DNA of 64,000 nt, from the NCBI GenBank assembly GCA_017511045.1, contig JAFWLM010000005.1, positions 1 through 64,000 of the forward strand, in the 5' to 3' direction. A program made the position numbers and the translations under genes. The stretch is from Lachnospiraceae bacterium. Lineage in GTDB: Bacteria > Bacillota > Clostridia > Lachnospirales > Lachnospiraceae. Below the pieces are notes generated by a model, which searched no databases, was not told the DNA's origin, and saw only the letters and a list, made by a program, of their open reading frames with translations. Below, one piece after another: positions 13,710-35,709 of the stretch (its first letter is position 1; each line of letters begins with the position of its first letter).

Positions 13710-14960
13710 TCAATACTTGCCGTAATCAAATGCAGTCTCCATCATTGCTTCAACATTTGCGACCGGCACATCGTCGATGGTGTCGGAAAGGTCGAAGATG
13801 TATCCGCCATCTACCGCACAGATGTCAAACAGCTCTTTCACTGCGTCCTTGACCTGCTGCGGGGTTCCGAGGCGAAGTACCTGTGAGCTTAAGCCTCCGG
13901 AGATGCAGTGATCTTTTCCAACGATTCTCTTTGCCTCTTTCATATCGACGTCTTCAAAATGGTACAGGCACTTGCCCGGCGTAATTTCTTTGATACGCTC
14001 TAAGCGGCTGTCATATTTGCCCTCGGTGTAGACCAGCGGCGTGTAGCCCATAGAGATCAAAGCCTCAAGCAGTCTCTGCAGTGTCGGCCAGTAGAACTCA
14101 TCATACTGCTCCGGTCCCATGAAGCCATCCAGACCTTTGTGGAGCGGGATGAAGACAAAGAGACCGTTTGCGTGCTGCATCTGTCCGATAGCGCCATAGA
14201 GGGAAGCCGGATAGAACATTTCGGTTGCTGCCTTGACCTCGTCCGGATGCTCATAAAGATCAGCCATTGTATCGATCGTGCCGCGAAGTGTATCAGACAG
14301 CATATCGAATGCGGTCGTTACGATAGCTCCGGCCCAGATCGGGAAGCCCATCTCCATCATCTCCTGCTCGAACGCTGCGACTTCACCCAGCCATGCGGCA
14401 CTCATCTGTCCTACCTCATTCAGAGTCTGCGCGATCTCCACGATCTGAGGATTTGCAAACTGCACCATAGCAGCCGGGATCGAATATGCGCTCATCGTCG
14501 GAATGCTGATATTTTTCAGCCCCTCTAACGCCCCATACGTTCTCGGAAGCCATTTGTTCAGGAACCATCCCGACGCATCGGAAAGCAGTTCCGGATATTC
14601 TCCGTCTGCCAGATACGGTTTTTCAATGTACTGGAAAATGTTTCTCGGATCCACTTTTCCTCCCGGCTGTCCCGGCCACTGGAACAGTTTCGCATCGAGT
14701 TTTTCCATGATCGGACCCTGTCCCAGGAAAAGCGAAGCGTATCCGATTCCCATATCCGGCTGGAAATAGTTCAGGAATTTCCGATATGCATCCTTTGCTT
14801 TTTCCGTATCATAGAAGCACTCAGCAATCGTGTACCCTGCCCAAAGATACGGGAAAGACTGAAAGAATGGAACCACCGGAACACGGTCCGTCTTTTCCAT
14901 TGCAATTGCTTTCTTTATACGATTTAACCGCTCATCGTATATTGCTTTGTTGTCAGCCAT
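13710..14960 (-). CDS. uroporphyrinogen decarboxylase-family protein, probably a corrinoid-type methyltransferase
   Basis: 416 residues, longer than HemE (about 350). The family TIM-barrel pattern is seen in DRVPVVPFFQSFPYLWAGYT at the N-terminus and in VDMKEAKRIVGKDHCISGG and DGGYIFDLSDTIDD near the end, where HemE-like proteins bind their ligand and MtaA/CmuA-like proteins carry the zinc site. The HemE-specific N-terminal arginine motif is not evident. In anaerobes such proteins commonly move methyl groups between corrinoid proteins and thiols or substrates. No corrinoid protein is adjacent, so this is inference. AGGAGG lies before the ATG. It is divergent from an MFS carrier, which may supply its substrate. 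Confidence 0.75.
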   Translation of the reverse strand: MADNKAIYDERLNRIKKAIAMEKTDRVPVVPFFQSFPYLWAGYTIAECFYDTEKAKDAYRKFLNYFQPDMGIGYASLFLGQGPIMEKLDAKLFQWPGQPGGKVDPRNIFQYIEKPYLADGEYPELLSDASGWFLNKWLPRTYGALEGLKNISIPTMSAYSIPAAMVQFANPQIVEIAQTLNEVGQMSAAWLGEVAAFEQEMMEMGFPIWAGAIVTTAFDMLSDTLRGTIDTMADLYEHPDEVKAATEMFYPASLYGAIGQMQHANGLFVFIPLHKGLDGFMGPEQYDEFYWPTLQRLLEALISMGYTPLVYTEGKYDSRLERIKEITPGKCLYHFEDVDMKEAKRIVGKDHCISGGLSSQVLRLGTPQQVKDAVKELFDICAVDGGYIFDLSDTIDDVPVANVEAMMETAFDYGKY

Positions 14961-21578: not shown

Positions 21579-23669
21579 TTATACCAGAAACAGAAGATAG
21601 CCATAGTTCGGGATCGGCCAGTACTCTTCTGCTGTCATCGTCTCTGCCTCGTCACAGACTGCCCTGAGTTCCTTCATCTTCGGAAGGATGTTGTCCCGGA
21701 TATAATAGCAGGCCTCCAGATCTTCTTCGATTCCGCTTGCTTTTGCAGTCAGATCTTCCAGTTCCAGATTCAAACGGTCGATCTCGTCTGCTATTCCTGA
21801 AAGCTTTTCAATCAGACGGCTTTCATATCTGCATGCAAGATCCGGTTTGAATTGACGTTTCGCATTCACTGTCTCAGCAATATCTCCAAGGAAGCCTTCA
21901 ACTGCCGGCAGGATCTGCTTGTCAACCATATCCGTCATAGTTCTCGCCTCGATCATAACGGTCTTGCGGTAGTTTTCCAGCAGGATTGCGCAGCGGGATT
22001 CCAGCTCAACCCGCACATAGACCTTCTGTTCTGTGAGCATCTTTACGTTCTTATCATCCAGCAGATGCGGAAGTGCGTCCGGAGTCGTTCTGTAGTTGCA
22101 CAGGCCTCTTTCTTCTGCTTCCCTAATCCACTCATCATCATAGCCGTTTCCGTTAAAGATGATGCGTCTATGATCCGTGAACGTCTTCTGGATCAGCTTG
22201 TGGACAGCCTCCTCAAAGTTATCTGCTTTTTCCAGCCGGTCTGCATAGATCCTTAAGGATTCCGCGACTGCGGAGTTCAGCATGATATTCGTGCAGGCAA
22301 TGCTGTCGGAAGAGCCGACCATACGGAACTCAAATTTGTTTCCGGTAAACGCAAACGGTGATGTTCTGTTCCTGTCAGTATTGTCTTTTACGAATTTCGG
22401 AAGAACCTCTGCGCCGAGCTTCATGATCTGTTTTTCTGCTGCTTTATAGTCTTTTTCCTCGATGATCGCATCCATGACGGCGGTCAGTTCATCACCTAAG
22501 AACATGGAGACCACAGCCGGAGGTGCTTCATTTGCTCCGAGTCTGCAGTCATTTCCTGCGGTTGCAACAGCGATACGGAGAAGATCCTGATAATCATCCA
22601 CGGCTTTAATAACCGCGCAGAGGAAGATCAGGAACTGCGCATTTTCATACGGAGTATCGCCCGGCGATAACAGATTGATGCCGGTATCTGTACTGATGGA
22701 CCAGTTGTTATGCTTTCCGCTTCCGTTCACACCTTCATAAGGTTTCTCGTGAAGCAGGCATACAAGATCATGTTTCTCCGCAACCTTCTGCATCACATCC
22801 ATCATCAGCTGGTTGTGATCCGTTGCGATATTGGTAGAGGTATAGATCGGAGCCAGCTCATGCTGTCCCGGAGCAACCTCGTTATGCTTTGTTTTTGCGG
22901 TAATACCGAGTTTCCAGAGTTCTCTGTCGAGATCCTCCATATATGCAGCGACACGCGGATTTAACGCTCCGAAGTAATGGTCATCCATTTCCTGACCCTT
23001 TGGAGGCATCGCGCCGAACAGGGTCCTTCCGGTAAATACCAGATCTTTTCGTTTTCCGTAAAGCTCACGGTCAACCAAAAAGTATTCCTGCTCTGCTCCA
23101 ACAGAGGTTTTAACATATTTTGCATCTTCATTACCGAACAGTCTCAGGATACGAAGTGCTTCTCTGTTCAAAGCTTCCATCGAACGCAGGAGCGGTGTCT
23201 TTTTATCTAACGCCTCGCCGTTATAAGAACAGAACGCCGTCGGGATATAGAGCGTTTTTCCTTTTACAAATGCATAGGAGGTCGGATCCCATGCCGTATA
23301 TCCTCTTGCTTCAAAGGTTGCGCGGATTCCGCCTGATGGGAAAGAAGATGCATCCGGCTCGCCTTTGATCAGCTCTTTTCCGGAAAACTCCATGACGACT
23401 CTGCCATCTGAAGACGGAGAAATAAAGCTGTCATGCTTTTCTGCCGTAACGCCTGTCAGCGGCTGGAACCAGTGGGTGAAATGGGTCGCACCCTTTTCGA
23501 TCGCCCAGTCTTTCATGGCCTCTGCAACGACATTTGCCACAGAGAGATCGAGCGGAGCTCCTTCATCGATGGTCTTTTTGAGTTTAATGTACGTTTCCGA
23601 AGAAAGATTCGCTTTCATCGTAAGATCATCAAACACCATACTTCCGAAAATATCTGTTACTTTTTCCAT
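21579..23669 (-). CDS. glnN: glutamine synthetase type III
   Basis: 696 residues, the usual GSIII length and well above GSI (about 450). GSIII-specific blocks are seen: [18 protein letters not shown] and [20 protein letters not shown] in the N-terminal third, [14 protein letters not shown] for metal and glutamate binding, and [12 protein letters not shown] for ammonium/ATP. It makes glutamine from glutamate, ammonia and ATP, as a dodecamer in known members. AGGAAGG lies before the ATG. A strong promoter at 23780-23808 and a leader with mutually exclusive hairpins precede it, pointing to nitrogen-dependent antitermination. Confidence 0.97.
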
Positions 23670-23861: not shown

Positions 23862-25262
23862 TTAATTATGCAATAGTTCCGTAAACTCTCTCATATCCTC
23901 TACTTCTTCGATCCTGTCTGCCAGTTCAATGATCTTTTCTGCATTGGCTGCAGGTAGTTTTCCATAGGCATTGAACTGATCCATGAATTTCGCGATCAAT
24001 TCCTCTTTCTCCGGGTAGCGTTCCATGACCATGAAGTTCTGTTCTGCTTCCAGAGTGGAACCGTCCTTCATTACAAAGACGGCCTTTACCATTGGTGCTC
24101 CGCCTTCCGGCTCATACGTTTCCATGGTCGCGCCTTCTGCCAGTCTCACCAGTTCGGTATCCTGCTGAATTGCAGAAGTTTGGACGGTCGCAACGGAAAC
24201 ATTGCCATAAAGTGCGCTGCAGGTCACTGCAAAGCGGTAAGCAAAGAGCGCATTCAGATGATTCCTGAGCGTAAACGGGTTAGCATAATAATGGTGATAA
24301 ATATTTTTAGCTCCATAAAAATGAACAGCTTCAATCGATTCTGCATCGATCTTCCCGTATTTATCAAGAAGCATCTGATGGATCTGTCTTCCCGCTAAAG
24401 CTGCTGCCGTCATCGGGATACCTCCCGGACTGATCTTAAACGCACACTCGGTATAATAGACTTGCCCGAGATCTTCGAAGATCGTTTCATAAAGCTCCGG
24501 ATAGTTTCCGTCTTTGACCCTTTGGGAGATCAGACCGCCATTGCCATAATAAGGATCTTCCAATCCCTTCCATCCTCCTTTTGCATACTCTGCGCACATA
24601 ATGCCTGCACGGGCGCTGACACCGTTATGCAGGTAGACTTCCTGTGAATAATCAAAATAGGAGTTCGCCGGGTCCGTGCAGTTTGTTGCCGCAAAGGAGA
24701 GTGCCGCTTTGGTCTGTTCGGCATCAAGCTTATAATATCTGCTCGCAACTGCAGCAGCAGCACTGGAGACCAGAAGCATATCCACCGGCCATCTGACAGG
24801 AAGAGAATACAGAAGCCTTCCCGCAATGTTTTCTCCTGCCACGTCATTGACGATCAGTTCCTTACCGGAAACACCCAGATGATCGGCAAGCGTCAGGCTC
24901 ATCGGGATCAAAGTTTCTCCCATATGGGAAGGCATTGCATCTCCCCTGACCTTAAACAGCATGTTGCCGTAGTCATTGGATCTGGCTTTGATCGCATTCA
25001 GCATTGCTGCATTCGGAAGAGGCAGGCGAAGCCCGTCAGAAGCAAACACAGCTGCTTCCGGCTTACCGCCCCAATCACGGTAGCGCTCTTCCAGGAAATC
25101 ATTTTCCTCAACGATCGCTCCGCCGAAAATGCATCCAACCATGTCCAGAAGACGATCCTTAAAAATACGGATATTATCTTCACTCAGATCTTCATAGGTG
25201 GTATTAACGATACTTTCGCAAAACAGATCGATCCCCTTCGGGCTTTCATATTTTTCATTCAT
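23862..25262 (-). CDS. MmgE/PrpD family protein (first of an adjacent pair)
   Basis: 466 residues from ATG 25262; AAGGTG six bases upstream selects it over a GTG three codons earlier. The all-helical N-terminal half and the smaller alpha/beta C-terminal domain follow the MmgE/PrpD plan; conserved areas include LLDMVGCIFGGAIVEEN, SNDYGN and HMGETLIP, where family members hold the active-site His/Lys/Asp cluster. Known members are 2-methylcitrate dehydratase, cis-aconitate decarboxylase and iminodisuccinate epimerase. It shares only family-level similarity with its upstream neighbour, and lacks the usual LDYDD-type text. No prpB, prpC or acnB homologue is near, so methylcitrate metabolism is unlikely. 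Confidence 0.85.
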   Translation of the reverse strand: MNEKYESPKGIDLFCESIVNTTYEDLSEDNIRIFKDRLLDMVGCIFGGAIVEENDFLEERYRDWGGKPEAAVFASDGLRLPLPNAAMLNAIKARSNDYGNMLFKVRGDAMPSHMGETLIPMSLTLADHLGVSGKELIVNDVAGENIAGRLLYSLPVRWPVDMLLVSSAAAAVASRYYKLDAEQTKAALSFAATNCTDPANSYFDYSQEVYLHNGVSARAGIMCAEYAKGGWKGLEDPYYGNGGLISQRVKDGNYPELYETIFEDLGQVYYTECAFKISPGGIPMTAAALAGRQIHQMLLDKYGKIDAESIEAVHFYGAKNIYHHYYANPFTLRNHLNALFAYRFAVTCSALYGNVSVATVQTSAIQQDTELVRLAEGATMETYEPEGGAPMVKAVFVMKDGSTLEAEQNFMVMERYPEKEELIAKFMDQFNAYGKLPAANAEKIIELADRIEEVEDMREFTELLHN

Positions 25263-25274
25263 ATTCGTCACCTT

Positions 25275-26672
25275 CTATAAACTGATTGCTTCAAATAATT
25301 CGTCCAGATTTTCGAGGTCTTCTAAATGCATAATGAGATCCGCAGCTTTATCCAATTTGTCATCTGTCAGGATCGTTGCACCCATATCTTTAAAGCGCTG
25401 GATCATTTCTTCATCTGTGAAAGCATAGCCTTCCACTTTTGCGCCCTTCGGATACATCGTCTCTTTCTTGAAGACCTGTCCTCTTGCTTTTACTTCGATC
25501 CTTCCGTACCAGCTCTTAGGATCCTTCTTCCTGTTTTCTGCATATTCCGGTGCAATATTCATATGCACTTTCTGCATGAACTCACGGACTGCCGGATCTT
25601 TCAGTGCTTTCTTTGACTGCCATTCCGGTCCGTTTCCATAGCCATTGATCACCAGGGAGAAACAGTATGGTGCACTGAACTGAACATCGATCTGGTTTTC
25701 CACTGCGTACTGATCCGGATGAGCATTAAACGGTGCCGTGAAGCACTGAACATCTTCGATCTCGAAGCGTGTCAGGTTTTCCTCTGCAATCAGGGCATTG
25801 AAGCAGTCTAAGATCGGATGGATAAAGGAGCAGCAAGGATACGGCTTATAGATATAGTTCAGAATATTCCATCTCTCTCCAAGTGCGCCGGCTACCTGTT
25901 CTTCATTCCAGATCTCCTTTGAATTGTTGTTATATACCGGGAATCCGAATTCATTATCAAGTGTCGTCGGGTTGCTCTCATAACCAAGCTTTGCAAGCAT
26001 AGCCGCTTCCACACCGCCCTGAGCCAGCCAGGATACCGGTGCGTATTTGATCATGGATTTCGGCATCGAGCTTTCCCAGTCATGTGCAACCGGAAGCGTG
26101 CAGTAGTAAGCTGCAATCGCAAGTGCCTGGTTGATCTGTTCTCTGGAAAGCTTCATGGCTACAGCATTGCCTACCGCCGCACCAATGATACTCTCGTTGC
26201 TGTTGCTGAAAATATCCGGCGTCTTGTTATATTTCATATACGAAATGATCATCTGCATTCCGAAAATACTGACGAGGCGAAGTGCGACCTCCTGTCCGAC
26301 GGTCAGTGCGGCCAAAAGCTCTTTTCCGCTGATTTTTTCTTTTTCTCCGACTGCCAGAATACTCGGAAGAACGGTCGGCGGGATATGCGGGATCGGGTCC
26401 CCGTCCAGTCCGTTTAACAGCTCTGCATTTGCAAAGGCTGCTGCCGCTGCGGAAACCTTTCCACCAACGCCGATCAAGGTCGCCTCTTCTCTTCCTCCCA
26501 GTTCGTGAGCCATGGCAACGCCGATCTTGCCTTTGTCCGACGCGATTCCTGCAAGCGCGTTTCCGATACCGTCAAGCAGGGTCATCTTCACTTCATGGAT
26601 CACGTTTTCCGGAATGTTCTCATATTTTCCGTACTTTTCGGCAAAATCCAAAAATTTATCTGTAACACTCAT
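25275..26672 (-). CDS. MmgE/PrpD family protein (second of the pair)
   Basis: 465 residues, ATG preceded by GAGGAG. N-terminal MmgE pattern: LLDGIGNALAG, the AAAAAFANAELLNGLDGDPIPHIPPTVLPSILA block with the conserved Asp and His positions, and a C-terminal domain ending in VKARGQVFKKETMYPKG. Its stop is 12 bases before the start of the other MmgE gene, so the two are co-translated and may form a hetero-oligomer, or act in sequence on the same organic acid (for instance epimerase plus dehydratase). A terminator-like hairpin separates it from dctP. Confidence 0.85.
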   Translation of the reverse strand: MSVTDKFLDFAEKYGKYENIPENVIHEVKMTLLDGIGNALAGIASDKGKIGVAMAHELGGREEATLIGVGGKVSAAAAAFANAELLNGLDGDPIPHIPPTVLPSILAVGEKEKISGKELLAALTVGQEVALRLVSIFGMQMIISYMKYNKTPDIFSNSNESIIGAAVGNAVAMKLSREQINQALAIAAYYCTLPVAHDWESSMPKSMIKYAPVSWLAQGGVEAAMLAKLGYESNPTTLDNEFGFPVYNNNSKEIWNEEQVAGALGERWNILNYIYKPYPCCSFIHPILDCFNALIAEENLTRFEIEDVQCFTAPFNAHPDQYAVENQIDVQFSAPYCFSLVINGYGNGPEWQSKKALKDPAVREFMQKVHMNIAPEYAENRKKDPKSWYGRIEVKARGQVFKKETMYPKGAKVEGYAFTDEEMIQRFKDMGATILTDDKLDKAADLIMHLEDLENLDELFEAISL

Positions 26673-26721
26673 GTTAATCTCCTCATTCTATTTTGATAAT
26701 CACTGTTTATCAAAGCCGAGT

Positions 26722-26754
26722 AAAAAGCAGGGCACCTTGAATAAAGTGCCCTGC
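26722..26754 (-). terminator. hairpin terminator between dctP and the MmgE/PrpD pair
   Basis: Reverse-strand stem GCAGGGCAC / GTGCCCTGC (26754-26746 with 26735-26727), ten-base loop, tail TTTTTAC. It should lower expression of the MmgE/PrpD genes relative to the binding protein. Confidence 0.8.
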
Positions 26755-26767
26755 CCTTAAATAAAAC

Positions 26768-27904
26768 TTATTTGAATCTTCCGTCGTAGTTGTCGATCGC
26801 AGCATTCAAGTCTGCAAATACTTCATCTACATGCTCGTTGCCAGCATCTTTCAATGCCTGCAGTTTTGCATCACCAAACGGTTTTGCCATTTCTTTCCAA
26901 GGATCCATATCAGGGCCTTCGATCCAGGTTACCGGGATTCCCCATTCTTCACAGTCATCTAAGTGGCTCTGATCCTGCTCATCCCAGAACTGTTTTGCTT
27001 CGGTCCAGAATGTTTCATTGCTGAACTCATCTTCAAAGATTGCCTGAAGGTCCGGTGTGAAGCTTTCCCACAGGTCTTTGTTGACTGCAAATACACGAAG
27101 TCCTGTTGTGAAGCTGTTCTCAAGCATATACACGCTCTTAGCAAGCTGAAGTGCGCCGAAGATATTTGTTACATAAAGTCCGATCATAACGCCGTCGATA
27201 ACGCCGTTCTGCATGCAGGAATACATCTCTGTCGGAGGCTGTGCAACCGGAGTTCCGCCTGCTGCAAGAATGAATTCGTTTTCGATATCACTGGTTGCCA
27301 TGATCTTCTTTCCAGCAAGATCCTGAGGAACTTTGATATCAACATTCTCTCTCATTACAAGGGATGTTCCCCAAACACCTACGAAGAATACCGGATGGAT
27401 GTTGGCCTTATCAAACTCAGCCATGCAGTATTCATTATTAGGAATGAACTGGTTCATGACATCGACTGCCATTGCAAGGCTCTTATATCCGAGGAACGGA
27501 TATTCATTGACCTGCTGTGAATATGGGAACCGGTCTTTGAAGTTTGTCAGAGTAATGTCTGCCATATCGCACATACCGGAACTGCAGGCATCCAGTGACT
27601 CCGTTGCAGAAGCTAAAGATCCGCCGAAATAGTTCACGAAGGTAACTTTTCCGCCCGTTCTTTCAGTGATCCGCTTTTCAACATCTACATACAGTGAGCA
27701 GAAGCTTTCACTCGATGCAAAGCTGAAAACGATTTCCATCGGATCGCCGGTGTATTCGCCGGTGTCCACATACGTCGGCTGTTCTCCGCCGCTTCCGGCT
27801 GTTCCGGAACCTGCTCCGCTGTCAGATCCGCCGCAGGCAGCAAGTGCTGCAACTACGAGCATCATTGCAAGCAATAAACTGACTAATTTTGCTATACGTT
27901 TCAT
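26768..27904 (-). CDS. dctP: TRAP transporter solute-binding lipoprotein
   Basis: 378 residues. A lipoprotein signal (KLVSLLLAMMLVVAALAAC) gives a lipidated Cys near residue 24, then a Gly/Ser-rich linker. The DctP-type fold follows, with the family region VDIKVPQDLAGKKIM and the ligand-arginine region SLVMREN. TRAP binding proteins capture organic acids (C4-dicarboxylates, sialic acid, keto-acids, aromatic acids) through an arginine-carboxylate bridge. It ends the transporter block, and the hairpin downstream would allow extra binding-protein mRNA. AGGAGG lies before the ATG. Confidence 0.93.
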   Translation of the reverse strand: MKRIAKLVSLLLAMMLVVAALAACGGSDSGAGSGTAGSGGEQPTYVDTGEYTGDPMEIVFSFASSESFCSLYVDVEKRITERTGGKVTFVNYFGGSLASATESLDACSSGMCDMADITLTNFKDRFPYSQQVNEYPFLGYKSLAMAVDVMNQFIPNNEYCMAEFDKANIHPVFFVGVWGTSLVMRENVDIKVPQDLAGKKIMATSDIENEFILAAGGTPVAQPPTEMYSCMQNGVIDGVMIGLYVTNIFGALQLAKSVYMLENSFTTGLRVFAVNKDLWESFTPDLQAIFEDEFSNETFWTEAKQFWDEQDQSHLDDCEEWGIPVTWIEGPDMDPWKEMAKPFGDAKLQALKDAGNEHVDEVFADLNAAIDNYDGRFK

Positions 27905-27980
27905 TTTCTCCTCCTATTCTTTATTAATATTTCTTTCAATATAATTTTATCAAATAATTAATACCTTTATTATCGGCGTT

Positions 27981-29279
27981 TTATCCCATCAGACTCGGAA
28001 TAAAGGTTGCGATCTGCGGGAATACGATCATCAGAATCAGGATGACCACATCAACTGCCAGGAACGGAAGTACCCCCTTGAAGATCTGCCCCGCAGGTTT
28101 TTGTATAGTTCCTGCCAGTGTGAAGACAGTCATTCCGACCGGCGGTGAGATTCCTCCGACTGCCATCAGCTTAACTACAAAGGCACCAAGCCAGATCGGG
28201 TCGAATCCTCTTCTGATCAATGCCGTATAAAGAACCGGAACCGTAAGGACGATCATCGGCACATCCGGGAGGAACATTCCCAGGATGAAATACAGAATGA
28301 TCAGAGCCGCAGCGATGACCCAGTTCGGAACGGTCAGTCCTGCAATAAAGTTTGCCAGGAACATCGGCACACGGGAAAGGCTCATAAAAGATACGAAGAT
28401 GTATGTGGATGCGACGAGGAAGAATACCATGCCGCACATAACAGCTGTATCTTTTAAAGCTTTTGTCAGTTTCTTTACGGTAAGCTGGCGGAAAGCAAAA
28501 GCAATGACGATCGAACCGAATGCGCCGATTGCGCCGGCCTCTGTTGTTGTAAAGAATCCGCCGTAAATACCGCCGAGAACAAGTGCCATGAGCAGAAGGA
28601 TCGGGATAACTTTAAGCAGCGTTTTCATCATTTTTTTAAACGCGACTTTCGGTCCTTTCGGTCCGCGTTTCGGATTAATGAGGCAAAGGAACCAGATCAG
28701 GATAATGTAAAGAACGATCTGTACAATACCGACACCGAAACCGGACATAAACAGTTTACCGATCGAGTTTTCTGTCAGAATACCGAAGATGATAAATCCG
28801 ATGCTCGGAGGAATCAGGATCGCCAGCGGTGCGCCCGCAGCGACCGATCCCAAAGCAAAGGTCTCATCATAATTATTTTTCTTCATTTCAGGGACTGCAA
28901 CTTTTGCCATGACCATAGTCGCAATATGGGTGGAACCCGTGATTGCGCCGAGAACGCCACATGCTACGACTGTTGCGCTTGCAAGACCGCCCCTGAAACG
29001 TCCGACAAACGCGTAAGCACAGGCGTATAGATCCTGTCCCATGGTCGATTCGGCTATTACCATGCCCATTAGAGTAAACATTGGTATGACTGTAAAGGTA
29101 TAGGAGTTCAAGTTAGAGAAGGCCGAGTTTCCTGCTACAGTCTCCGCGACTCCCATTCCTTTCAGGATGATGATGCCTACAATACTGACGACCAGCATGG
29201 CGGCACCGACCCACATCTTAAGAGCAAGAAGAATCAATAATACGATCAGACCAATCAGTCCTATCAGTTCCGGTCTCAT
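27981..29279 (-). CDS. dctM: TRAP transporter large permease
   Basis: 432 residues with about twelve helices, the usual DctM length. Family text includes ITGSTHIATMVMAKVAVPEM, LAILIPPSIGFIIFGILTENSIGKLFMSG and GGISPPVGMTVF, corresponding to the two helix-hairpin regions that hold sodium. It is the ion-coupled transport subunit. Its ATG overlaps the dctQ stop (ATGA), so the two subunits are translationally coupled. Confidence 0.95.
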   Translation of the reverse strand: MRPELIGLIGLIVLLILLALKMWVGAAMLVVSIVGIIILKGMGVAETVAGNSAFSNLNSYTFTVIPMFTLMGMVIAESTMGQDLYACAYAFVGRFRGGLASATVVACGVLGAITGSTHIATMVMAKVAVPEMKKNNYDETFALGSVAAGAPLAILIPPSIGFIIFGILTENSIGKLFMSGFGVGIVQIVLYIILIWFLCLINPKRGPKGPKVAFKKMMKTLLKVIPILLLMALVLGGIYGGFFTTTEAGAIGAFGSIVIAFAFRQLTVKKLTKALKDTAVMCGMVFFLVASTYIFVSFMSLSRVPMFLANFIAGLTVPNWVIAAALIILYFILGMFLPDVPMIVLTVPVLYTALIRRGFDPIWLGAFVVKLMAVGGISPPVGMTVFTLAGTIQKPAGQIFKGVLPFLAVDVVILILMIVFPQIATFIPSLMG

Positions 29280-29962
29280 ACTGTGCCTCCTTTCCCTTCA
29301 TCTTCCTGTTTTTCTGTTTTCAAAACTGTCTCCGGTGCAATCTCCGGTCCATCCGCTGTCTTCGGAATTTCTCCTTCGGAAGGCGCATCCGGGTCTTCAC
29401 CGTTCATCAGTTTCTGGATCCGTGGCGGAATGTTTTTCCCGAAAACAAAGATCGGATCCATATCTTCCAGTTCTGCTTCCCTAAGCCAGTTTCCTTTTGT
29501 AGCATTTACGATCTTCCGAATCATGACACACAAAGCAGTGATCGCGCCGACACCGTAGGAAAATGCAAACAATGCGATGAACGGCCACTGAGGAAGACCG
29601 ATCGTGGTATAGCGTACCCCGTTCTCCATACTCGCCATGGAATACATGAACTGTCTCCATGCGGTATAACCGATTGCCGCAAAGCAAAGGAATAGAAGAA
29701 CGATGTCCAAAATCACCTGTACCTTTTTCGGAAGGCGTGCGGTCACCATATTGACCTTGATCATTCTGTTGGACAATACCGCGGCACCCATTGCCGTCAG
29801 ATCGAACAGAAGCAGTAATGCCGCCCATTCCGTTGCTCCGAGGATTGAAGAGTGGAAGAATGTTCGAAGGACCACTTCCGCAACCATCATGAGCATCAGA
29901 GCTGCAATGAATATCATTGTCAGCCAAACGAAAAACCGGCAGATCGCTCTGATTACTTTCAT
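29276..29962 (-). CDS. dctQ: TRAP transporter small permease
   Basis: 228 residues, four predicted helices in the first 150 (for example IFIAALMLMMVAEVVLRTFF and LLLFDLTAMGAAVLS, with the family EW motif as TEWAALL). The C-terminal 80 residues are a polar, proline/glutamate-rich cytoplasmic tail (GEDPDAPSEGEIPKTADG), longer than in most DctQ proteins, which end soon after helix 4. It forms the membrane complex with DctM. Stop overlaps the dctM start. Confidence 0.92.
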   Translation of the reverse strand: MKVIRAICRFFVWLTMIFIAALMLMMVAEVVLRTFFHSSILGATEWAALLLLFDLTAMGAAVLSNRMIKVNMVTARLPKKVQVILDIVLLFLCFAAIGYTAWRQFMYSMASMENGVRYTTIGLPQWPFIALFAFSYGVGAITALCVMIRKIVNATKGNWLREAELEDMDPIFVFGKNIPPRIQKLMNGEDPDAPSEGEIPKTADGPEIAPETVLKTEKQEDEGKGGTV

Positions 29963-29995
29963 TCGTTTCTCCCTTCTTAATACTTCTGATGTTTA

Positions 29996-31474
29996 TTACG
30001 GCTGACGATACTTCGCAAACTCCTCAGGATCTTCAGCTGCAAGTTTTGCCAGTTTCGTGTAGAGCCCGTATTTATGTTCTTCGCAGAGCTCCGTCAATGC
30101 CGGATCAACACCGGCATGACGTGGAAGCGGAACATCCTGTTCCACAAGGATATCCTGTACGCGCTCAATGTTGACATCATGCACAGTGCTGTTGTCTGTA
30201 ACAGCGACTGCTGCCGCAACGCCTGCTGCCTGCCCTGTGCCGACGCACTGCGGGATCAGGTTCAGCCAGTCGATTGCTACATTATCAGAAGAAATGTGTC
30301 TGCCCGGGCAAAGCAGATTTTCCACTCCCCTCGGAAGGATCGCTCTGTATGGGATCTCGATCGGTGCGGAATCATTGATCCTGCAGATCGTGCTGTGCCA
30401 TGCGATAACATCATCAAATTCACGATGGAACGCGAAGTCAGACATGGTCATAACATATTCACCCTGAAGACGGCGGCTACAGCGTGCTCCGAGCTGAGGA
30501 GCAATATCATATAGTTCCGCATTTTCAAATCCGACTGCATTCTTCCTCATAAAGTCGATAATGTCACGGATCTTATCACGCACCAGCATTTCCGTCGCGG
30601 TCAGGTCTTTTACCTTCGTGCAGTCAAACGGTCCAAGCCAGTTGTTAAACCAGACCATATTCGGATCCTGTGTCGGAAGAGGCATGATCAGATGTCCCAG
30701 CATCCCTTTCAGCGGTCCGACGATCTTGCCGAATGCAGACGGATCTTTCTGGTTGTTTCTGAAAAATGCTTCGTAATCAACATTGCATACACGGAATACC
30801 ATTGCCGTATTTGTTGATCTGGTATCTGCATCCGAGTCCGCCGCATACGGAGCTTTCGTCTGTGCAAACAGATCGCCGTCTCCTGTGGCATCGATCACGA
30901 CCTTTGCAAGGATCGCTTTTCTTCCTTCTTTACTTTCAAAGATCACACCTTTGACCGCATCATTTTCTACGATCGGCGCAGCTGCCCAAGTGTGACAGTA
31001 AACACGGATATTTTCTTTCTCTTCGAGAAGCATTTTATCTAATTCGATCTTTAACTGGTTAGGCTCAAAATAGACCGAACGTACAACACGCTTCGGAACT
31101 TCTTCCACGCGGCTGACTGCATCCCAGATAGGCTCCCATTTATGGATCACATCCGGATCCGTGCTTCCGATCTCATCTCCTTCTGCGCCGAGTACCGCGC
31201 CAGGAATGTTGGAGAGTCTGGTAAACCATTCTTCCTGGAGTCCTCTTACATAGGACTGATTCAGCCAGGTAAGGTTTGGTACCATAATGACATAGCCTCC
31301 GGTAACATCACCACCCATATAACCGTAGCGTTCTAAAAGTACAATATTTTTAGCGCCGGCCCTCGCTGCCGCGATCGCAGCTGAATGTCCGGCAGCTCCA
31401 CCCCCTACAACAAGGATGTCACACTCATCGAACACTTCGATGCTTCTCGCTTCCTCCATAAAAATTTTACTCAT
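29996..31474 (-). CDS. FAD-dependent oxidoreductase (FAD_oxidored family)
   Basis: 492 residues, no signal peptide. Dinucleotide fold near residue 22: VVGGGAAGHSAAIAAARAG, then ERYGYMGGDVTGG; a second FAD motif VVIDATGDGDLFA near 205; C-terminal LCPGRHISSDNVA and CVGTGQAAGVAAA. This is the PF12831-type family, whose few studied members oxidise or reduce polyols and organic acids, some with an Fe-S cluster. No CxxC cluster motif is evident here. It is the first gene after the MerR-controlled promoter, 33 bases upstream of dctQ, so it should act on the compound imported by the TRAP system. GGAGG precedes the ATG. Confidence 0.88.
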   Translation of the reverse strand: MSKIFMEEARSIEVFDECDILVVGGGAAGHSAAIAAARAGAKNIVLLERYGYMGGDVTGGYVIMVPNLTWLNQSYVRGLQEEWFTRLSNIPGAVLGAEGDEIGSTDPDVIHKWEPIWDAVSRVEEVPKRVVRSVYFEPNQLKIELDKMLLEEKENIRVYCHTWAAAPIVENDAVKGVIFESKEGRKAILAKVVIDATGDGDLFAQTKAPYAADSDADTRSTNTAMVFRVCNVDYEAFFRNNQKDPSAFGKIVGPLKGMLGHLIMPLPTQDPNMVWFNNWLGPFDCTKVKDLTATEMLVRDKIRDIIDFMRKNAVGFENAELYDIAPQLGARCSRRLQGEYVMTMSDFAFHREFDDVIAWHSTICRINDSAPIEIPYRAILPRGVENLLCPGRHISSDNVAIDWLNLIPQCVGTGQAAGVAAAVAVTDNSTVHDVNIERVQDILVEQDVPLPRHAGVDPALTELCEEHKYGLYTKLAKLAAEDPEEFAKYRQP

Positions 31475-31548
31475 AGGCTACCTCCATATAAGCTGAAAAT
31501 TGACAGTCACTTATATAAAAACTATAATAAAACACGTATTACAATTAA

Positions 31549-31579
31549 AATGTAAACTTTTGGGTAAGACTAAAGTCAA
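31549..31579 (-). promoter_or_regulatory. promoter of the FAD-oxidoreductase/TRAP/MmgE cluster, 19-bp spacer
   Basis: Reverse-strand TTGACT (31579-31574) and TACATT (31554-31549) are 19 bases apart. A 19-20 bp spacer is the hallmark of MerR-activated promoters, where the regulator untwists DNA to realign the boxes. Confidence 0.6.
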
Positions 31580-31584
31580 GCCCA
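31561..31584 (+). promoter_or_regulatory. dyad upstream of merR, probable MerR-type operator
   Basis: TGGG-3-GACT-2-AGTC-3-CCCA: a 24-base inverted repeat with matching outer and inner arms. It overlaps the -35 and part of the spacer of the reverse promoter and lies just upstream of the merR ribosome site, so it could control both directions. Confidence 0.6.
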
Positions 31585-31600
31585 TTTTGGAGATTTTTTT

Positions 31601-32425
31601 ATGCACGTTGACGGAGAAAAAGCCTTCTTTTCGATCGGTGAGTTTATGAAACTCTGTGATACGACAAGAGAGACCTTGTACCACTATGAAAAGCAGGGTC
31701 TTTTGCTTCCTGTAACCGATCCGAACAACGGATACCGCAGCTATACCCCACATGATTATTATACCTTCATGCTGATCTCCCATCTGACAAAGATCGGGTA
31801 TTCCCTGCACGAAGTGAAAGATTATCTTCCTAACCAGACATTGGAAAACTACTTTGATGCGCTCAGAACAAGCGACCTCCGAAACGAGGAAAAGCAGGAA
31901 AAGCTCCGCATCCGGAAAGAACGTACCCGCAGGGGCTATGACCAGCTGAAGATGTTTGCCGGACGTCCGTTGGATACCCCGCAGATCACATACCGGGAAG
32001 ATGAATACTTTCTTCGGATCCCGTTTGATAACAGCAATCCGATCGTCAGCGATGTCCTCTGCTCTTCTGAGCAGGACCGCTACAGCGCAGAACACGGGAT
32101 CGATATCCAACGGCATTATCACGGTTACTATTCAGAAGACCCATTTTCAACACCACTGCCGGTCTTCCAATATAATCTTGCTCTCCTCAGTGAACCCTGT
32201 GATTCCGACCGTCTTTTCGTGCGACCGGCCGGAATGTACATCTCCATGTGTTATAAAGGACCTTTCTACGGTGACAGTTCCCCTTCCTATAAAATAGTGC
32301 AGGATTATCTGAAGTATCACCGTTATAAACCATTAACAGGAATGTTCGTAGAGATCGCAGTCGGTCCGTTTCACACAAAAGATGTTAATGAGTTCGTAGC
32401 AGAATTATCTATTAAGATCGAATAA
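31601..32425 (+). CDS. MerR family regulator with GyrI-like effector domain
   Basis: 274 residues. The N-terminal winged helix reads FSIGEFMKLCDTTRETLYHYEKQGLL then PNNGYRSYTPHDYYTF, the MerR DNA-binding signature. A coiled-coil of about 40 residues follows, then a C-terminal GyrI-like ligand-binding domain (about 125-274) as in BmrR and TipA. Such regulators bind an organic ligand and activate promoters with long spacers. GGAG is nine bases before the ATG. It is divergent from the FAD-oxidoreductase operon and is the natural candidate regulator of it. The gene ends at a bidirectional terminator. Confidence 0.9.
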   Translation: MHVDGEKAFFSIGEFMKLCDTTRETLYHYEKQGLLLPVTDPNNGYRSYTPHDYYTFMLISHLTKIGYSLHEVKDYLPNQTLENYFDALRTSDLRNEEKQEKLRIRKERTRRGYDQLKMFAGRPLDTPQITYREDEYFLRIPFDNSNPIVSDVLCSSEQDRYSAEHGIDIQRHYHGYYSEDPFSTPLPVFQYNLALLSEPCDSDRLFVRPAGMYISMCYKGPFYGDSSPSYKIVQDYLKYHRYKPLTGMFVEIAVGPFHTKDVNEFVAELSIKIE

Positions 32426-32476: not shown

Positions 32477-32549
32477 TGAGCGTGCGGGGATTCGAACCCC
32501 GGACAACTTGATTAAAAGTCAAGTGCTCTACCACCTGAGCTACACGCCC
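32477..32549 (-). tRNA. tRNA-Lys (anticodon TTT)
   Basis: Reverse strand folds as a cloverleaf: acceptor GGGCGTG / CACGCTC, anticodon loop CTTTTAA, T-arm CCGGGGTTCGAATCCCCG. Discriminator A; no CCA encoded. Last gene of the five-tRNA operon. Confidence 0.95.
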
Positions 32550-32581
32550 GTATTTAGTTATCAAATCTCTTTTCAGAGAAG

Positions 32582-32653
32582 CAGGGCTAGCAAGATTCGA
32601 ACTTGCGAATGCAGGAGTCAAAGTCCTGTGCCTTACCGCTTGGCGATAGCCCT
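32582..32653 (-). tRNA. tRNA-Gln (anticodon TTG)
   Basis: Acceptor AGGGCTA / TAGCCCT, anticodon stem CAGGA / TCCTG around CTTTGAC, T-loop TTCGAAT. Discriminator G; no CCA encoded. Confidence 0.94.
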
Positions 32654-32691
32654 GTATCAAGTCTATCTGGTAAGGTGCTGCCCTTTTTGAG

Positions 32692-32766
<75 letters not shown>

Positions 32767-32798
32767 ATATGAGTATCTATCTGACCCTGCCGGTCGAA

Positions 32799-32872
<74 letters not shown>

Positions 32873-32902
32873 ACTTGTGCCTAGTTCCCTAAGGAAACTA
32901 AA

Positions 32903-32973
32903 AGCGGGTGATGGGAATCGAACCCACGTATCCAGCTTGGAAGGCTGGTGTTCTACCATTGAACTACACCCGC
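32903..32973 (-). tRNA. tRNA-Gly (anticodon TCC)
   Basis: Acceptor GCGGGTG / CACCCGC, anticodon stem CCAGC / GCTGG around CTTCCAA, T-loop TTCGATT. Discriminator T; no CCA encoded. First gene of the operon. Confidence 0.94.
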
Positions 32974-33004
32974 AATAAGTGGCGCATGTCACGCGACTTG
33001 TGAC

Positions 33005-33033
33005 ATTATATCACCTTGTTTTTTCTTTGTAAA
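33005..33033 (-). promoter_or_regulatory. tRNA operon promoter
   Basis: Reverse-strand TTTACA (33033-33028) and TATAAT (33010-33005), 17-base spacer, about 30 bases upstream of tRNA-Gly. Confidence 0.8.
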
Positions 33034-33052
33034 TAGCGAATTTCAACTAATT

Positions 33053-34522
33053 TTAAACGTCATTTTCAATGAATTCAGCAGCGTTTTCTCCCGCCATGCG
33101 TCCGCTGTTTAAAGCAAATCCCATCGTATTTCCCGGGAAGGTAAAGACATAGGAACCATCATAAATATCGTTCACATCACTTCCTGCTCCGTAAAGCCCG
33201 GGAATCGGGATATGATCCTCTGTCAGTACCCGGAGATCGGAATCGATCAGAATGCCTCCGAGAGAACCGTATGCTCCGATCGAGATCGCAGCTGCATAGA
33301 AAGGTGCTGTATCGATCGGCCGCAGGAATCTCCTGTCTTTTCCGAATACAGAGTCCCAGTTATCTTCACATAATTCATTATACTCATCGATGGTCTTTTT
33401 CAGTTCCTCATACGGACATCCCATCTTCTCTGCAAGCTCTTCGATCGATCCCGCGATGATCATGCTCTCCGGAGCTGCTTCTACTGCTTTCGGCATCATC
33501 TCCTCAAAATAAGCTACAATGTCGCCGAACATCTTCGTCATATCGTTCGGAACATCTACGCCGTTTCTCTTATAGGCTCCGATGATCCGTTTATCAAGGA
33601 TCGAGAAGATCCTTCTGTCTTTCTGAATATCCACAACGTTCGATGCATAAGACGTATTCTCCATCAGCTCTTCATTCATGACACGATGTCCTTCCAGGTT
33701 CACGATCAGATTCGGCTGATTAAAGATATTGCTGAGTGGCAGGAACATGTCGTTTTTTACACCCGCGACGAGATGGGTGATCTTTTCCATGCTCATGCGG
33801 CCTTTTCCGGCTCCTGCTTCCCACGCCATTTTAAGTCCGTCGCCATCGACTCCCGGAATACGGAAATTAAAAATATCCGTTCCATAGGTATAGCCGGTGT
33901 TTTCTTTGATCATCTCCACATTATTTCCAAAGCCGCCGGTCGCAATGATAACAGCTTTCGCGCTGCAGCTGATCTCCGCTCCGGTTTTATCAACAGCAAC
34001 AACACCTGTGATCTTTCCGTCTTCTTTCAGGATCTTCTTCACCGGAGTCTCTGTATGGATCTCAACGCCAAGTTCTGCAGCTCTCTCCGTCATGCGCTTA
34101 CACATTGTCCCTGCACTTCTCGGTCCCGGAAAACCTCCGTCTTCCGGAAGGACCATATGCCAGGTCCTGTGTGAGCCCGGAAAATACTTATTTGCCCCGG
34201 CAAATTTTACACCCATATCTTCCAGCCAGGAGATCGTATCGCCGGATTTTTCAAAATAGTTTTTTACAAGCCTTGCGTCCACATGCCATCTGGTTTCCCG
34301 CATATAATCTTCAAACGCTTTTTCCACCGTCAGGTTTTCCATCATATCTTTTTGGAAATGGCTTTCAACAGCAAACGGTCCCATTCCCATATTGGCAGTG
34401 CCTCCGGTGACTGCTGCCTTTTCGAAAACGATGACTTTCTTTTCTTTTTCCGCTGCCGCGATCGCTGCTGCAAGACCCGCAGGGCCTGCTGCGATGACAG
34501 CTACATCACAAGTTAGATTCAT
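33053..34522 (-). CDS. FAD-binding (fumarate-reductase-type) flavoprotein
   Basis: 489 residues, cytoplasmic, a stand-alone FAD_binding_2 domain without the heme or FMN-binding domains found in secreted relatives. FAD fold at the N-terminus reads VIAAGPAGLAAAIAA, with Ala instead of the first Gly of GxGxxG; the C-terminus has the family GGILIDSDLRVL and NSGRMAGENAAEF. Members reduce enoate double bonds (fumarate, urocanate, cinnamate) or dehydrogenate steroids. The gene follows a flavodoxin-fold reductase by 23 bases, which could supply electrons. Substrate unknown; no respiratory-chain partner is nearby. Confidence 0.88.
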   Translation of the reverse strand: MNLTCDVAVIAAGPAGLAAAIAAAEKEKKVIVFEKAAVTGGTANMGMGPFAVESHFQKDMMENLTVEKAFEDYMRETRWHVDARLVKNYFEKSGDTISWLEDMGVKFAGANKYFPGSHRTWHMVLPEDGGFPGPRSAGTMCKRMTERAAELGVEIHTETPVKKILKEDGKITGVVAVDKTGAEISCSAKAVIIATGGFGNNVEMIKENTGYTYGTDIFNFRIPGVDGDGLKMAWEAGAGKGRMSMEKITHLVAGVKNDMFLPLSNIFNQPNLIVNLEGHRVMNEELMENTSYASNVVDIQKDRRIFSILDKRIIGAYKRNGVDVPNDMTKMFGDIVAYFEEMMPKAVEAAPESMIIAGSIEELAEKMGCPYEELKKTIDEYNELCEDNWDSVFGKDRRFLRPIDTAPFYAAAISIGAYGSLGGILIDSDLRVLTEDHIPIPGLYGAGSDVNDIYDGSYVFTFPGNTMGFALNSGRMAGENAAEFIENDV

Positions 34523-34545
34523 TTCTTTATCTCCCGTTTATGAGC

Positions 34546-35490
34546 TTATTTTTTCTCCGGTCTGCTCGGAACTAAAACGCTCTTCATTGCTTCATTTCTG
34601 CGGTCCATCTCGGTGCGGTCCAGGTTGCGAAGCTTCATTCCGGTTCCAAGCATATCCTTTAAGTGCTGCAAACGTCCTTCATCTGTGATCAGGGAATGCT
34701 TCTTATCTTCCTCGTTGAAGACAGGTGTTAAGCCGCCATTTCCGTCGCTCTCCAGTTTGCCGGGCATTCCGCACACAAGACACTCCACACTTCCGGTCGC
34801 AAGATCATTGATCTTAAATTCTTCTGCATGACAGCATGGGCAGATGCCTTTCGGTCCTATATATTCCGCGGTTCCGTTCATGACACACTCTCCGAGATGT
34901 TTGCCGCTTGCTTTGATCTCTGCCAGTTTGTCATCCTCGGTTCGAAGCATGACATTCCATTTGTAATATTTCTCATCAACAATATTGAAGCCCATCGGAA
35001 TCGCCCAGAGTTTCTGAAGCGGAAGGTTCAAACTGCACCAGTCACTTCCGCCGTGTCCGATAAACACGACCGGACGGCGTTTGAAGGATCTTTCATCGAT
35101 GCTTCTTCCATCCTGGATATTTTCTTCTTTTCTTCTCTTTGCAAAAACTTCCCGGATCGTAATGTCATGGTTCGGGCCGGTACGGTCCATCAGTGCTTTA
35201 AAGTCAGACGGGATCGTCTTCTCATATGATGGAAGTACAATGACGATACCGTCGCTGTCTAAGATCTTTTCGTCGAGCCACTGGAAATCATCTTTCATCG
35301 TACACTGTCCGTTATAAGCCAACGGAGGATCCTGACATTGATTACATTCAATGCAGGGTTTGATGGTAAGCTGCCGAAGGTTGATCAGCTCCACTTCGCA
35401 TCCTGCTTCCTGTGCTCCTAAAAGCGCTGTCTTTGCAATATACTCTCCGGTCTCATTTCTTCGTCCGATCACTAATCCTAATACTTTCAT
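34546..35490 (-). CDS. flavodoxin-fold NAD(P)H oxidoreductase with Cys clusters
   Basis: 314 residues from ATG 35490; GGAG six bases upstream selects it over a TTG four codons earlier that overlaps the ribosome site. N-terminal half is an NADPH-dependent FMN reductase-type flavodoxin fold (MKVLGLVIGRRNETG). At about residue 45 it has CIECNQC with a further Cys ten residues on, close to the compact cluster motif of iron-sulfur flavoproteins. At about 210-235 a second set, CPCC then CLVC, resembles a zinc ribbon and is not part of the basic fold. Co-transcribed with the FAD flavoprotein, for which it may be the electron donor. Confidence 0.82.
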   Translation of the reverse strand: MKVLGLVIGRRNETGEYIAKTALLGAQEAGCEVELINLRQLTIKPCIECNQCQDPPLAYNGQCTMKDDFQWLDEKILDSDGIVIVLPSYEKTIPSDFKALMDRTGPNHDITIREVFAKRRKEENIQDGRSIDERSFKRRPVVFIGHGGSDWCSLNLPLQKLWAIPMGFNIVDEKYYKWNVMLRTEDDKLAEIKASGKHLGECVMNGTAEYIGPKGICPCCHAEEFKINDLATGSVECLVCGMPGKLESDGNGGLTPVFNEEDKKHSLITDEGRLQHLKDMLGTGMKLRNLDRTEMDRRNEAMKSVLVPSRPEKK

Positions 35491-35709
35491 TTCATTCTCC
35501 AATTCTTTTCTGAAAACCTGTTTCTACAATTATCATTTTATTTTCTGTAATCAAAAAAAGGAAACAACATTGTCTCTCATTCAGCAACAAGAATTACTTG
35601 TGTCCATCTGTCTTTTTAATTGTTTCCTTTCCGCTTTCCCGCTTGCTATATTGAGATTGGAAGAATATGTTTTTAAATATCAAAGCAAGTAAAAAACAGG
35701 AGATTTTTT
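35491..35709. promoter_or_regulatory. divergent intergenic region with inverted repeats
   Basis: 219 AT-rich bases between the flavoprotein operon and the TPR gene. It holds an 11-bp perfect inverted repeat, AAAGGAAACAA (35557-35567) and TTGTTTCCTTT (35620-35630), spaced by 52 bases, and between them the dyad ACAAG-5-CTTGT (35587-35601), a shape compatible with a LysR-type site. Confidence 0.45.

What the first reader, a model, noticed from the sequence alone, without database searches (positions are those of the whole stretch)
23862..31600. Unassigned organic-acid system: paired MmgE/PrpD enzymes, TRAP transporter, FAD oxidoreductase and a MerR/GyrI sensor
Seen: six same-strand genes (FAD oxidoreductase, dctQ, dctM, dctP, MmgE, MmgE) with a divergent ligand-sensing MerR regulator and a MerR-type promoter. 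Known: MmgE/PrpD enzymes act on branched or C4-C6 organic acids, and TRAP systems import carboxylates. Inferred: the acid is imported, oxidised or reduced by the flavoenzyme, and processed by the two MmgE proteins, perhaps as a hetero-oligomer or two steps. No methylcitrate, itaconate or sialic acid gene is present, so no known pathway fits.
Basis: partly seen in the sequence, partly recalled or inferred. Interest (0 to 1): 0.72.

Follow-up and report, generated by a model that had tools for sequence, protein, structure and literature searches.

The report
Paired MmgE enzymes with carboxylate-blind importer
A rare operon in an uncultured Clostridia bacterium joins an importer and two linked enzymes that have each lost some of the amino acids their families use to grip acids, so it may handle an unusual, perhaps uncharged, compound rather than an ordinary organic acid.

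Summary
In detail: six minus-strand genes (FAD oxidoreductase, dctQ, dctM, dctP, MmgE-A, MmgE-B) with a divergent merR and a MerR-type promoter. The complete order is present in 4 of 14 genomes of the genus (own included); dctM-dctP-A-B recurs in another family. The "organic acid" interpretation is weakened. DctP has Met202 where 30 of 30 class controls have the carboxylate-binding Arg; 18 of 30 DctPs examined in the genus lack it, against a published 3% of 6142. Both MmgE proteins keep the catalytic His, Asp and at least one enolate Lys, but A lost two His, and B two His (one became Arg) and one Lys, of the family's 1,4-dicarboxylate clamp. A and B are separate old lineages, side by side in 10 of 11 assessable loci, with correlated distances (r = 0.94, 9 loci). 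Best reading: uptake and enolate-type conversion of a non-1,4-dicarboxylate, possibly a plant phenolic or ketone: a sister FAD-TRAP module in the same genome, with the same promoter core, lies beside two DAPG-hydrolase-family genes. Substrate, heteromer and flavoenzyme direction are inferred; both structure predictions failed. New variant of known kinds.

The parts
23862..25271 (-). MmgE-B (P0001, 469 aa): MmgE/PrpD-family protein; Asp100, His116 and Lys279 kept, Arg97 in place of a clamp His; second clamp His and the Lys198-equivalent lost
25275..26672 (-). MmgE-A (P0002, 465 aa): MmgE/PrpD-family protein; Asp90, His96, Lys209 and Lys276 kept; two clamp His lost (Asn87; Phe155 in the second column)
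26768..27904 (-). DctP solute-binding protein (P0003) with Met202 in place of the carboxylate-binding Arg; Ser181 and Ile241 at the two supporting positions by alignment
27981..29279 (-). DctM, TRAP large permease (P0004)
   Evidence: TIGR00786 280.1 bits, cut-off 268.45
29276..29962 (-). DctQ, TRAP small permease (P0005)
29996..31474 (-). FAD-dependent oxidoreductase (P0006), PF12831; no profile match to a solved structure at E 1e-5, only partial single-sequence matches at E 3e-5 and weaker
31549..31579 (-). MerR-type promoter of the operon: TTGACT-N19-TACATT with an ACTTT/AAAGT dyad read by eye (the script's 6-bp dyad search found none here, but GACTTT/AAAGTC in L045 and L046)
31500..31528 (+). 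Perfect sigma-70 consensus match (17-bp spacer) facing merR
31601..32425 (+). MerR-family regulator (P0007, 274 aa): MerR helix-turn-helix plus a C-terminal part with only a sub-threshold GyrI-like match

Best explanation
An inducible uptake-and-conversion operon for a small molecule that is not a canonical 1,4-dicarboxylate. MerR activates the 19-bp-spacer promoter when it senses the compound (inferred from MerR-family knowledge). The Arg-less DctP hands a ligand without the usual carboxylate anchor to DctQM (inferred from residue loss). The FAD enzyme oxidises or reduces it (family-level inference; direction unknown). MmgE-A and MmgE-B then do proton-abstraction/enolate chemistry (isomerisation, elimination or C-C cleavage next to a carbonyl) as a co-inherited pair, most likely a heteromer in which A is the more classical catalytic unit. 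Shown: gene order, promoter, residue differences, co-inheritance of A and B, and that A and B belong to separate old lineages. Inferred: ligand class (perhaps a plant phenolic or cyclic ketone, by analogy with the paralogous operon), heteromer, and step order.
For: Operon order MerR<>FAD-Q-M-P-A-B complete in 4 of 14 genus genomes, own included; M-P-A-B in another family, the contig starting inside dctM. Arg replaced in P0003 and in its four orthologues L043, L045, L046 and L039; genus 12 of 30 Arg, class control 30 of 30 Arg; 3% of 6142 lack it in print. Clamp: 12 of 12 references and controls keep the His85, Asp/Glu88, His99, Lys198 and Lys266 equivalents and 10 of 12 His150; A 0 of 10 His85 and 0 of 10 His150; B 0 of 11 His85, His150 and Lys198. 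A directly beside B in 10 of 11 assessable loci; Mantel r 0.941, 0 of 20000 permutations; A and B separate clades. Sister module in own contig C49 with two DAPG_hydrolase genes.
Against: In L070 B lies between FAD and an unrelated gene without A beside it, so the pairing has one exception. A's nearest outside relative (41%, L042) sits beside a DASS/CitT-type carboxylate transporter and also lacks the clamp His, so A may still act on a carboxylate. An Arg-less pocket can bind a carboxylate in other ways: SiaP without Arg147 still works at high substrate concentration. B has gained an invariant Arg97 that could bind an anion. The FAD-TRAP-MerR module occurs without MmgE (L044, L047), and the A/B pair without TRAP on the visible stretch (L053, L071; L052, L072 and L073 are cut by contig ends), so they may not share one substrate. 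The class control took one receptor per genome, which favours canonical ones. No structure, ligand or expression data; both AlphaFold models were unusable.
Confidence: 0.47

Rival explanations
1. Conventional organic-acid catabolism: a carboxylate (aromatic or branched) is imported by a divergent TRAP system, oxidised or reduced by the flavoenzyme, and isomerised or dehydrated in two steps by A and B, which bind a mono- or non-1,4-dicarboxylate.
For: Characterised MmgE/PrpD substrates are dicarboxylates and TRAP ligands are predominantly carboxylates. A keeps both enolate lysines, Asp and His. A's 41% relative is beside a CitT-like carrier. The closest DctP relatives of known structure keep the Arg (that some bind aromatic acids is recalled, not checked).
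Against: Loss of the Arg in P0003, and of the residues at the two supporting positions by alignment; loss of two (A) or three (B) clamp residues.
Confidence: 0.3
2. Two independent cassettes under one promoter: a FAD-TRAP-MerR module for one compound and an MmgE pair for another, joined by chance and kept because both are useful on the same food.
For: FAD-TRAP-MerR without MmgE beside it: L044 and L047. L161 has the same module with a 28% FAD relative, but its contig ends inside dctP, so MmgE cannot be excluded there. MmgE pair without TRAP on the visible stretch: L053; with an ABC importer instead: L071.
Against: FAD lies directly beside B even without TRAP in L052, L053 and L070; the M-P-A-B order survives in another family.
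Confidence: 0.2
3. MmgE-B is a non-catalytic partner (pseudoenzyme) that stabilises or regulates MmgE-A, the only enzyme of the pair.
For: B lost the Lys198-equivalent, both clamp His and the Cys/His at the 277 position; its C-terminal domain is below the Pfam cut-off. Near-constant adjacency to A. Four distant B relatives (L074, L075, L077, L080) even have Lys at the catalytic His.
Against: B keeps the catalytic His116, Asp100 and Lys279 in 11 of 11 and has an invariant Arg97, which looks like changed rather than lost chemistry. A tandem pair of the B side of the tree, without A in the fetched stretch, exists in L004. L070 has B without A beside it.
Confidence: 0.2

Closest known systems
MmgE/PrpD family: 2-methylcitrate dehydratase, cis-aconitate decarboxylase, iminodisuccinate epimerase, (S)-(R)-methylsuccinate isomerase (PMC12290011, abstract and passages)
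   Same: Both proteins hit PF03972 well above cut-off and keep the catalytic His, the acidic residue and one (B) or two (A) enolate lysines
   Different: His85- and His150-equivalents lost in both, Lys198-equivalent lost in B; a co-inherited pair of two old lineages, which the passages read do not describe for characterised members
DctPQM TRAP transporters (e.g. SiaPQM)
   Same: All three subunits in one operon, family scores above cut-off
   Different: The carboxylate-anchoring Arg is Met; compare the roughly 3% Arg-less receptors such as Tp0957 (Ala, hydrophobic pocket) and Csal_0678 (ethanolamine) cited in PMC4646407 (passages)
Paralogous FAD-MerR-TRAP operon in the same genome (contig C49, L047; orthologue L044)
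   Same: FAD 71%, DctM 68%, MerR 28% identity; same promoter core; also Arg-less DctP
   Different: DAPG-hydrolase-family, NMO/FabK-like, FAD_binding_2, URO-D-like and MFS genes instead of the MmgE pair
Tricarballylate dehydrogenase TcuA and other FAD dehydrogenases of organic acids
   Same: FAD-binding N-terminus
   Different: NCBIfam TcuA model 23.4 bits against cut-off 369; P0006 belongs to PF12831

Membership tests
MmgE/PrpD family | MmgE_PrpD N-terminal domain above Pfam cut-off | tested here: met
   A 124.7, B 102.7 bits, cut-off 32.1
MmgE/PrpD family | MmgE_PrpD C-terminal domain above cut-off | tested here: inconclusive
   A 72.7 met; B 25.0 below cut-off 32.1
MmgE/PrpD family | Catalytic His (IDS epimerase His99) | tested here: met
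   10 of 10 A, 11 of 11 B; not in four distant B relatives left out of that count
MmgE/PrpD family | Complete 1,4-dicarboxylate clamp H85, D88, H99, H150, K198, K266, described as conserved in the family (PMC12290011, passages) | tested here: not met
   A lacks H85 and H150; B lacks H85, H150 and K198
2-methylcitrate dehydratase PrpD | NCBIfam equivalog score | tested here: not met
   A 30.6 against cut-off 950 for NF042438; B no hit
cis-aconitate decarboxylase | His277 and Tyr318 (human numbering; Tyr319 in mouse) of the mammalian enzyme | tested here: not met
   His277 column: C in A, G in B. Tyr column read by eye only: His318 in A, Tyr in B
IDS epimerase / methylsuccinate isomerase | The six listed residues plus a second base Tyr (Tyr145/Tyr148) | tested here: not met
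   Clamp incomplete; Tyr column K in A, gap in B (this column is poorly aligned)
DctPQM TRAP transporter | DctP, DctQ and DctM together, family scores above cut-off | tested here: met
DctPQM TRAP transporter, carboxylate-selective type | Arg147-equivalent in DctP | tested here: not met
   Met202 in P0003; class controls 30 of 30 Arg
DctPQM TRAP transporter | Actual transport and ligand | not testable with these tools
   needs purified protein
MerR-family activator | MerR HTH and a promoter with a 19-20 bp spacer | tested here: met
MerR/GyrI-type regulator | GyrI-like effector domain | tested here: inconclusive
   PF06445 13.5 bits, cut-off 26
FAD_oxidored (PF12831) | Pfam score | tested here: met
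   264.5 bits, cut-off 27
Tricarballylate dehydrogenase TcuA | NCBIfam equivalog score | tested here: not met
   23.4 against 369

The most novel reading that the evidence does not exclude
A heteromeric MmgE/PrpD enzyme (A plus B) that has left the 1,4-dicarboxylate substrates said to unite the whole family, fed by a TRAP importer that has lost its carboxylate filter. It would be a matched transporter-enzyme shift to neutral, perhaps plant-derived molecules, in a genus where Arg-less TRAP receptors are the majority of those examined (18 of 30).
Probability: 0.28. Interest if true: 0.75.

Novelty: new variant of a known kind. Interest (0 to 1): 0.5.

Why it matters
[quoted passage not shown] Here such receptors come with enzymes and a regulator that may narrow the ligand class, so the question becomes testable. 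The MmgE pair could extend the chemistry of a family whose members are mostly uncharacterised (PMC12290011, passages: homologues in 19.2% of the GTDB species searched).

Tried and rejected
Rejected: recent tandem duplication of the MmgE genes (separate clades). Rejected: methylcitrate, cis-aconitate, methylsuccinate and TcuA assignments. Not pursued: ETF as electron partner of the FAD enzyme. ETF genes lie near the FAD relative in L161, but on the far side of merR and beside an acyl-CoA dehydrogenase gene, so they look like a separate operon.

Led nowhere: AlphaFold of MmgE-B (pLDDT 42.7) and FAD (32.6) from shallow alignments, so no fold search was run. A profile search of the PDB with the FAD alignment gave 0 hits at 1e-5. 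Literature, open-licence PubMed Central only: 0 papers with 'MmgE PrpD family' and 'TRAP transporter'; 0 with 5 of 6 MmgE/PrpD/gut/flavonoid terms; 0 with phloretin hydrolase, Lachnospiraceae and TRAP transporter; 0 with uroporphyrinogen decarboxylase, MmgE, TRAP and gut; 0 with PrpD and TRAP transporter. Searches with hits: 13; 1; 2; 208, 25 listed; 1. Of these I read passages of PMC4646407, PMC11668362, PMC12290011 and PMC7347537; the rest I saw only as listings. The viral, phage and E. coli collections were not searched; plasmids gave one 25.6% hit. Whether G574 got the operon by transfer was not settled: the glutamine synthetase chosen as yardstick has no match there at 1e-20.

Second copy in the own genome (contig C115): its MmgE-B fragment and neighbours are 89-98% identical to G587. 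I made no genome-wide comparison with G587, but this is as close as or closer than the sister G593, so I treat C115 as a possible binning contaminant and do not use it as evidence for a second copy.

Rows left out: 11 of 41 genus DctP matches had no locus and were not examined. The class control used the best locus of each of 30 genomes, 30 of the 84 matches outside the own genome, which favours canonical receptors. In one search the truncated A of L072, the B fragment of L040 and the distant B relatives (L074, L075, L077, L078, L080) were not counted; L074, L075, L077 and L080 show Lys where B has its catalytic His. URO-D-like genes lie near Arg-bearing receptors too (L163, L168), so they do not mark the Arg-less ones.
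Full report
WHAT IS THERE. Six genes run on the minus strand between 23862 and 31474: FAD oxidoreductase (PF12831), DctQ, DctM, DctP, MmgE-A and MmgE-B in the order of transcription, with the merR gene divergent at 31601-32425. The glutamine synthetase gene at 21579-23669 follows but has a strong promoter-like site of its own at 23808-23780 (11 of 12 matches), so I take it as outside the unit. A 19-bp-spacer promoter, TTGACT-N19-TACATT, lies at 31579-31549 on the minus strand, and merR has a perfect sigma-70 consensus match at 31500-31528. The genome is a 2.04-Mb, 81%-complete assembly in 151 contigs. Its nearest named relative here is an uncultured Clostridia MAG (L003); the habitat is unknown.

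CONSERVATION. The whole MerR<>FAD-Q-M-P-A-B order is present in G593 (82-97% identity) and in G594 and G589 (56-82%), that is, in 4 of 14 genus genomes counting the own one. In G574, of another family, the contig opens inside dctM and continues dctP-A-B-URO-D-like gene (45-78% identity for the four shared genes); a URO-D-like gene also follows in G594 and G589. Flanks are shared with G593; G589 and G594 have other neighbours. MmgE-B of this subfamily (at least 50% identity) occurs in 8 of 14 genus genomes, and strongly in only 1 further genome, G574, of the 391-genome class sample. The 200-genome family sample had 2 weak matches beside the own genome.

PAIRING. Of 12 loci with B of this subfamily, 10 have A directly beside it, in tandem (window, L043, L045, L046, L039, L071) or divergent (L052, L053, L072, L073). 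One cannot be judged: L040 starts inside B. One is an exception: in L070 B lies between FAD, cut by the contig start, and an unrelated gene, so A is not beside it, though it could lie beyond the contig end. So 10 of 11. FAD is directly beside B in L052, L053 and L070, but not in L071, L072 or L073. L071 carries an ABC importer and a PucR-type regulator instead of TRAP. In a maximum-likelihood tree A and B are separate, fully supported groups; B lies with a tandem pair from a Dehalococcoidia contig (L004), A with the more classical members (the program warned that some long branches meet). Distances of A and B across 9 loci correlate (r = 0.941, 0 of 20000 permutations; r = 0.78 on 5 representatives). 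Linked inheritance alone would give this, so it shows co-inheritance, not contact.

RESIDUES: TRANSPORTER. In the phmmer alignments Met202 of DctP stands at the Arg of 4nap, 4pgn and 7nr2. PMC4646407 (passages read) reports that this Arg anchors the ligand carboxylate, that 3% of 6142 receptors lack it, and that Tp0957 has a hydrophobic pocket and Csal_0678 binds ethanolamine. In my survey 12 of 30 genus receptors have the Arg and 18 of 30, the window's included, do not (Met 7, Gly 5, Ile 3, Trp 2, Val 1). By eye the 18 fall into about 11 sequence groups, so this is not one gene counted often. 30 of 30 class controls have it. The same alignment puts Ser181 and Ile241 at the two supporting Arg and Asn positions; that these support carboxylate binding is from PMC11668362 (passages), and my match of the positions is by alignment and spacing. 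The paralogous receptors of L044 and L047 have Met too; the L004 receptor also lacks the Arg.

RESIDUES: ENZYMES. PMC12290011 (abstract and passages) states that all known MmgE/PrpD substrates share a 1,4-dicarboxylate backbone, that the coordinating residues (H85, D88, H99, H150, K198, K266 in IDS epimerase) are conserved, and that the chemistry probably runs through an enolate. In my alignment the two references and 10 class homologues keep all of these (Asp or Glu for D88), except Asp for H150 in two. A has Asn (9 of 10; Tyr in L042) for H85 and Phe for H150 (10 of 10). B has Arg for H85 (11 of 11), Pro (10) or Tyr (1) for H150 and Val or Phe for K198 (11 of 11). Both keep D88, H99 and K266; A keeps K198. 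The H150 column of A lies beside an insertion, so 'Phe' is alignment-dependent, but there is no His nearby in P0002.

CONTEXT. In the same genome, contig C49 (L047) carries a second FAD (71%), MerR (28%) and Arg-less TRAP set with the same promoter core, here upstream of both FAD and dctQ. It adds two DAPG_hydrolase-family genes, an NMO/FabK-like and a FAD_binding_2 flavoprotein, a URO-D-like gene (by BLAST) and two MFS carriers. With up to 2 mismatches the promoter motif gave only six sites in the 14 genomes, all in front of these FAD genes; the motif was built from these sites, so only the absence of others is information. Other FAD paralogues of the genus lie beside AmmeMemoRadiSam genes, esterases and flavin reductases. 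This leans towards plant phenolics or ketones, but it is guilt by association.

CAUTIONS. A's closest outside relative (G224, 41%) lies by a CitT-like carrier and also lacks the clamp His, so loss of the clamp need not mean loss of all carboxylates. The FAD-TRAP module also occurs without MmgE, and the MmgE pair without TRAP on the stretches seen. URO-D-like genes lie near both Arg-less and Arg-bearing receptors. Contig C115 of the own genome may be a contaminant. Substrate, reaction and complex formation are untested, and both structure predictions were too poor to use.

VERDICT. A real, conserved, rarely distributed operon. Its parts belong to known families, but three of its proteins have each lost acid-gripping residues tied to those families' known substrates. 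The bold reading is a co-ordinated move away from dicarboxylates; the sober one is a divergent carboxylate pathway.

Noticed in passing
G000:C49 124000-143000 (L047); orthologue L044: Second FAD-MerR-TRAP operon with two DAPG_hydrolase-family genes, NMO/FabK-like, FAD_binding_2, URO-D-like and MFS genes; same 19-bp promoter core before FAD and before dctQ; DctP also lacks the Arg.
   Followed up: partly
genus survey, L089-L118; neighbourhoods L149-L168: 18 of 30 DctP receptors examined in this genus lack the carboxylate-binding Arg, against 0 of 30 class controls. Neighbours of Arg-less ones include FAD_binding_2 flavoproteins (L151, L155), an FMN reductase (L149) and URO-D-like genes (L152, L154, L160); URO-D-like genes also lie by Arg-bearing ones (L163, L168).
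   Followed up: partly
L046:16389-17453, L045:15980-17044, L039:4725-5711: A URO-D-like protein follows the MmgE pair in three genomes but not in the window; the L046 and L039 copies hold an HSCG motif (reminiscent of MtaA-type methyltransferases, recalled). A different URO-D gene lies in the window at 13710-14960 (no BLAST match at 1e-3).
   Followed up: partly
L048:4140-6256; L055:5284-7391: AmmeMemoRadiSam proteins (LigB/AMMECR1 fusion plus radical SAM enzyme) lie near PF12831 FAD-gene paralogues in two species.
   Followed up: no
L004:2029-13355: Dehalococcoidia contig with a tandem pair of MmgE genes on the B side of the tree, a TRAP receptor lacking the Arg, two iron alcohol dehydrogenases, a glyoxalase-like gene and an OYE-type flavin reductase.
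   Followed up: partly
G000:C115 (L040): MmgE-B fragment and neighbours 89-98% identical to genome G587; possible misbinned contig.
   Followed up: partly
L078:4702-16076: MutE, MutL, a distant MmgE-B relative, a TRAP set whose DctP keeps the Arg, and two URO-D-like genes in one neighbourhood.
   Followed up: no
window 32477-35502: Cluster of five tRNA genes just beyond the 3' end of merR, then a FAD_binding_2 flavoprotein (33053-34522) and an FMN reductase-like gene (34546-35502), all on the minus strand.
   Followed up: no
L071:510-10883: MmgE-B and MmgE-A followed by an ABC importer (ATPase, two BPD_transp_2 permeases, one unassigned 379-aa protein) and an iron alcohol dehydrogenase, with a divergent PucR-type regulator.
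   Followed up: partly
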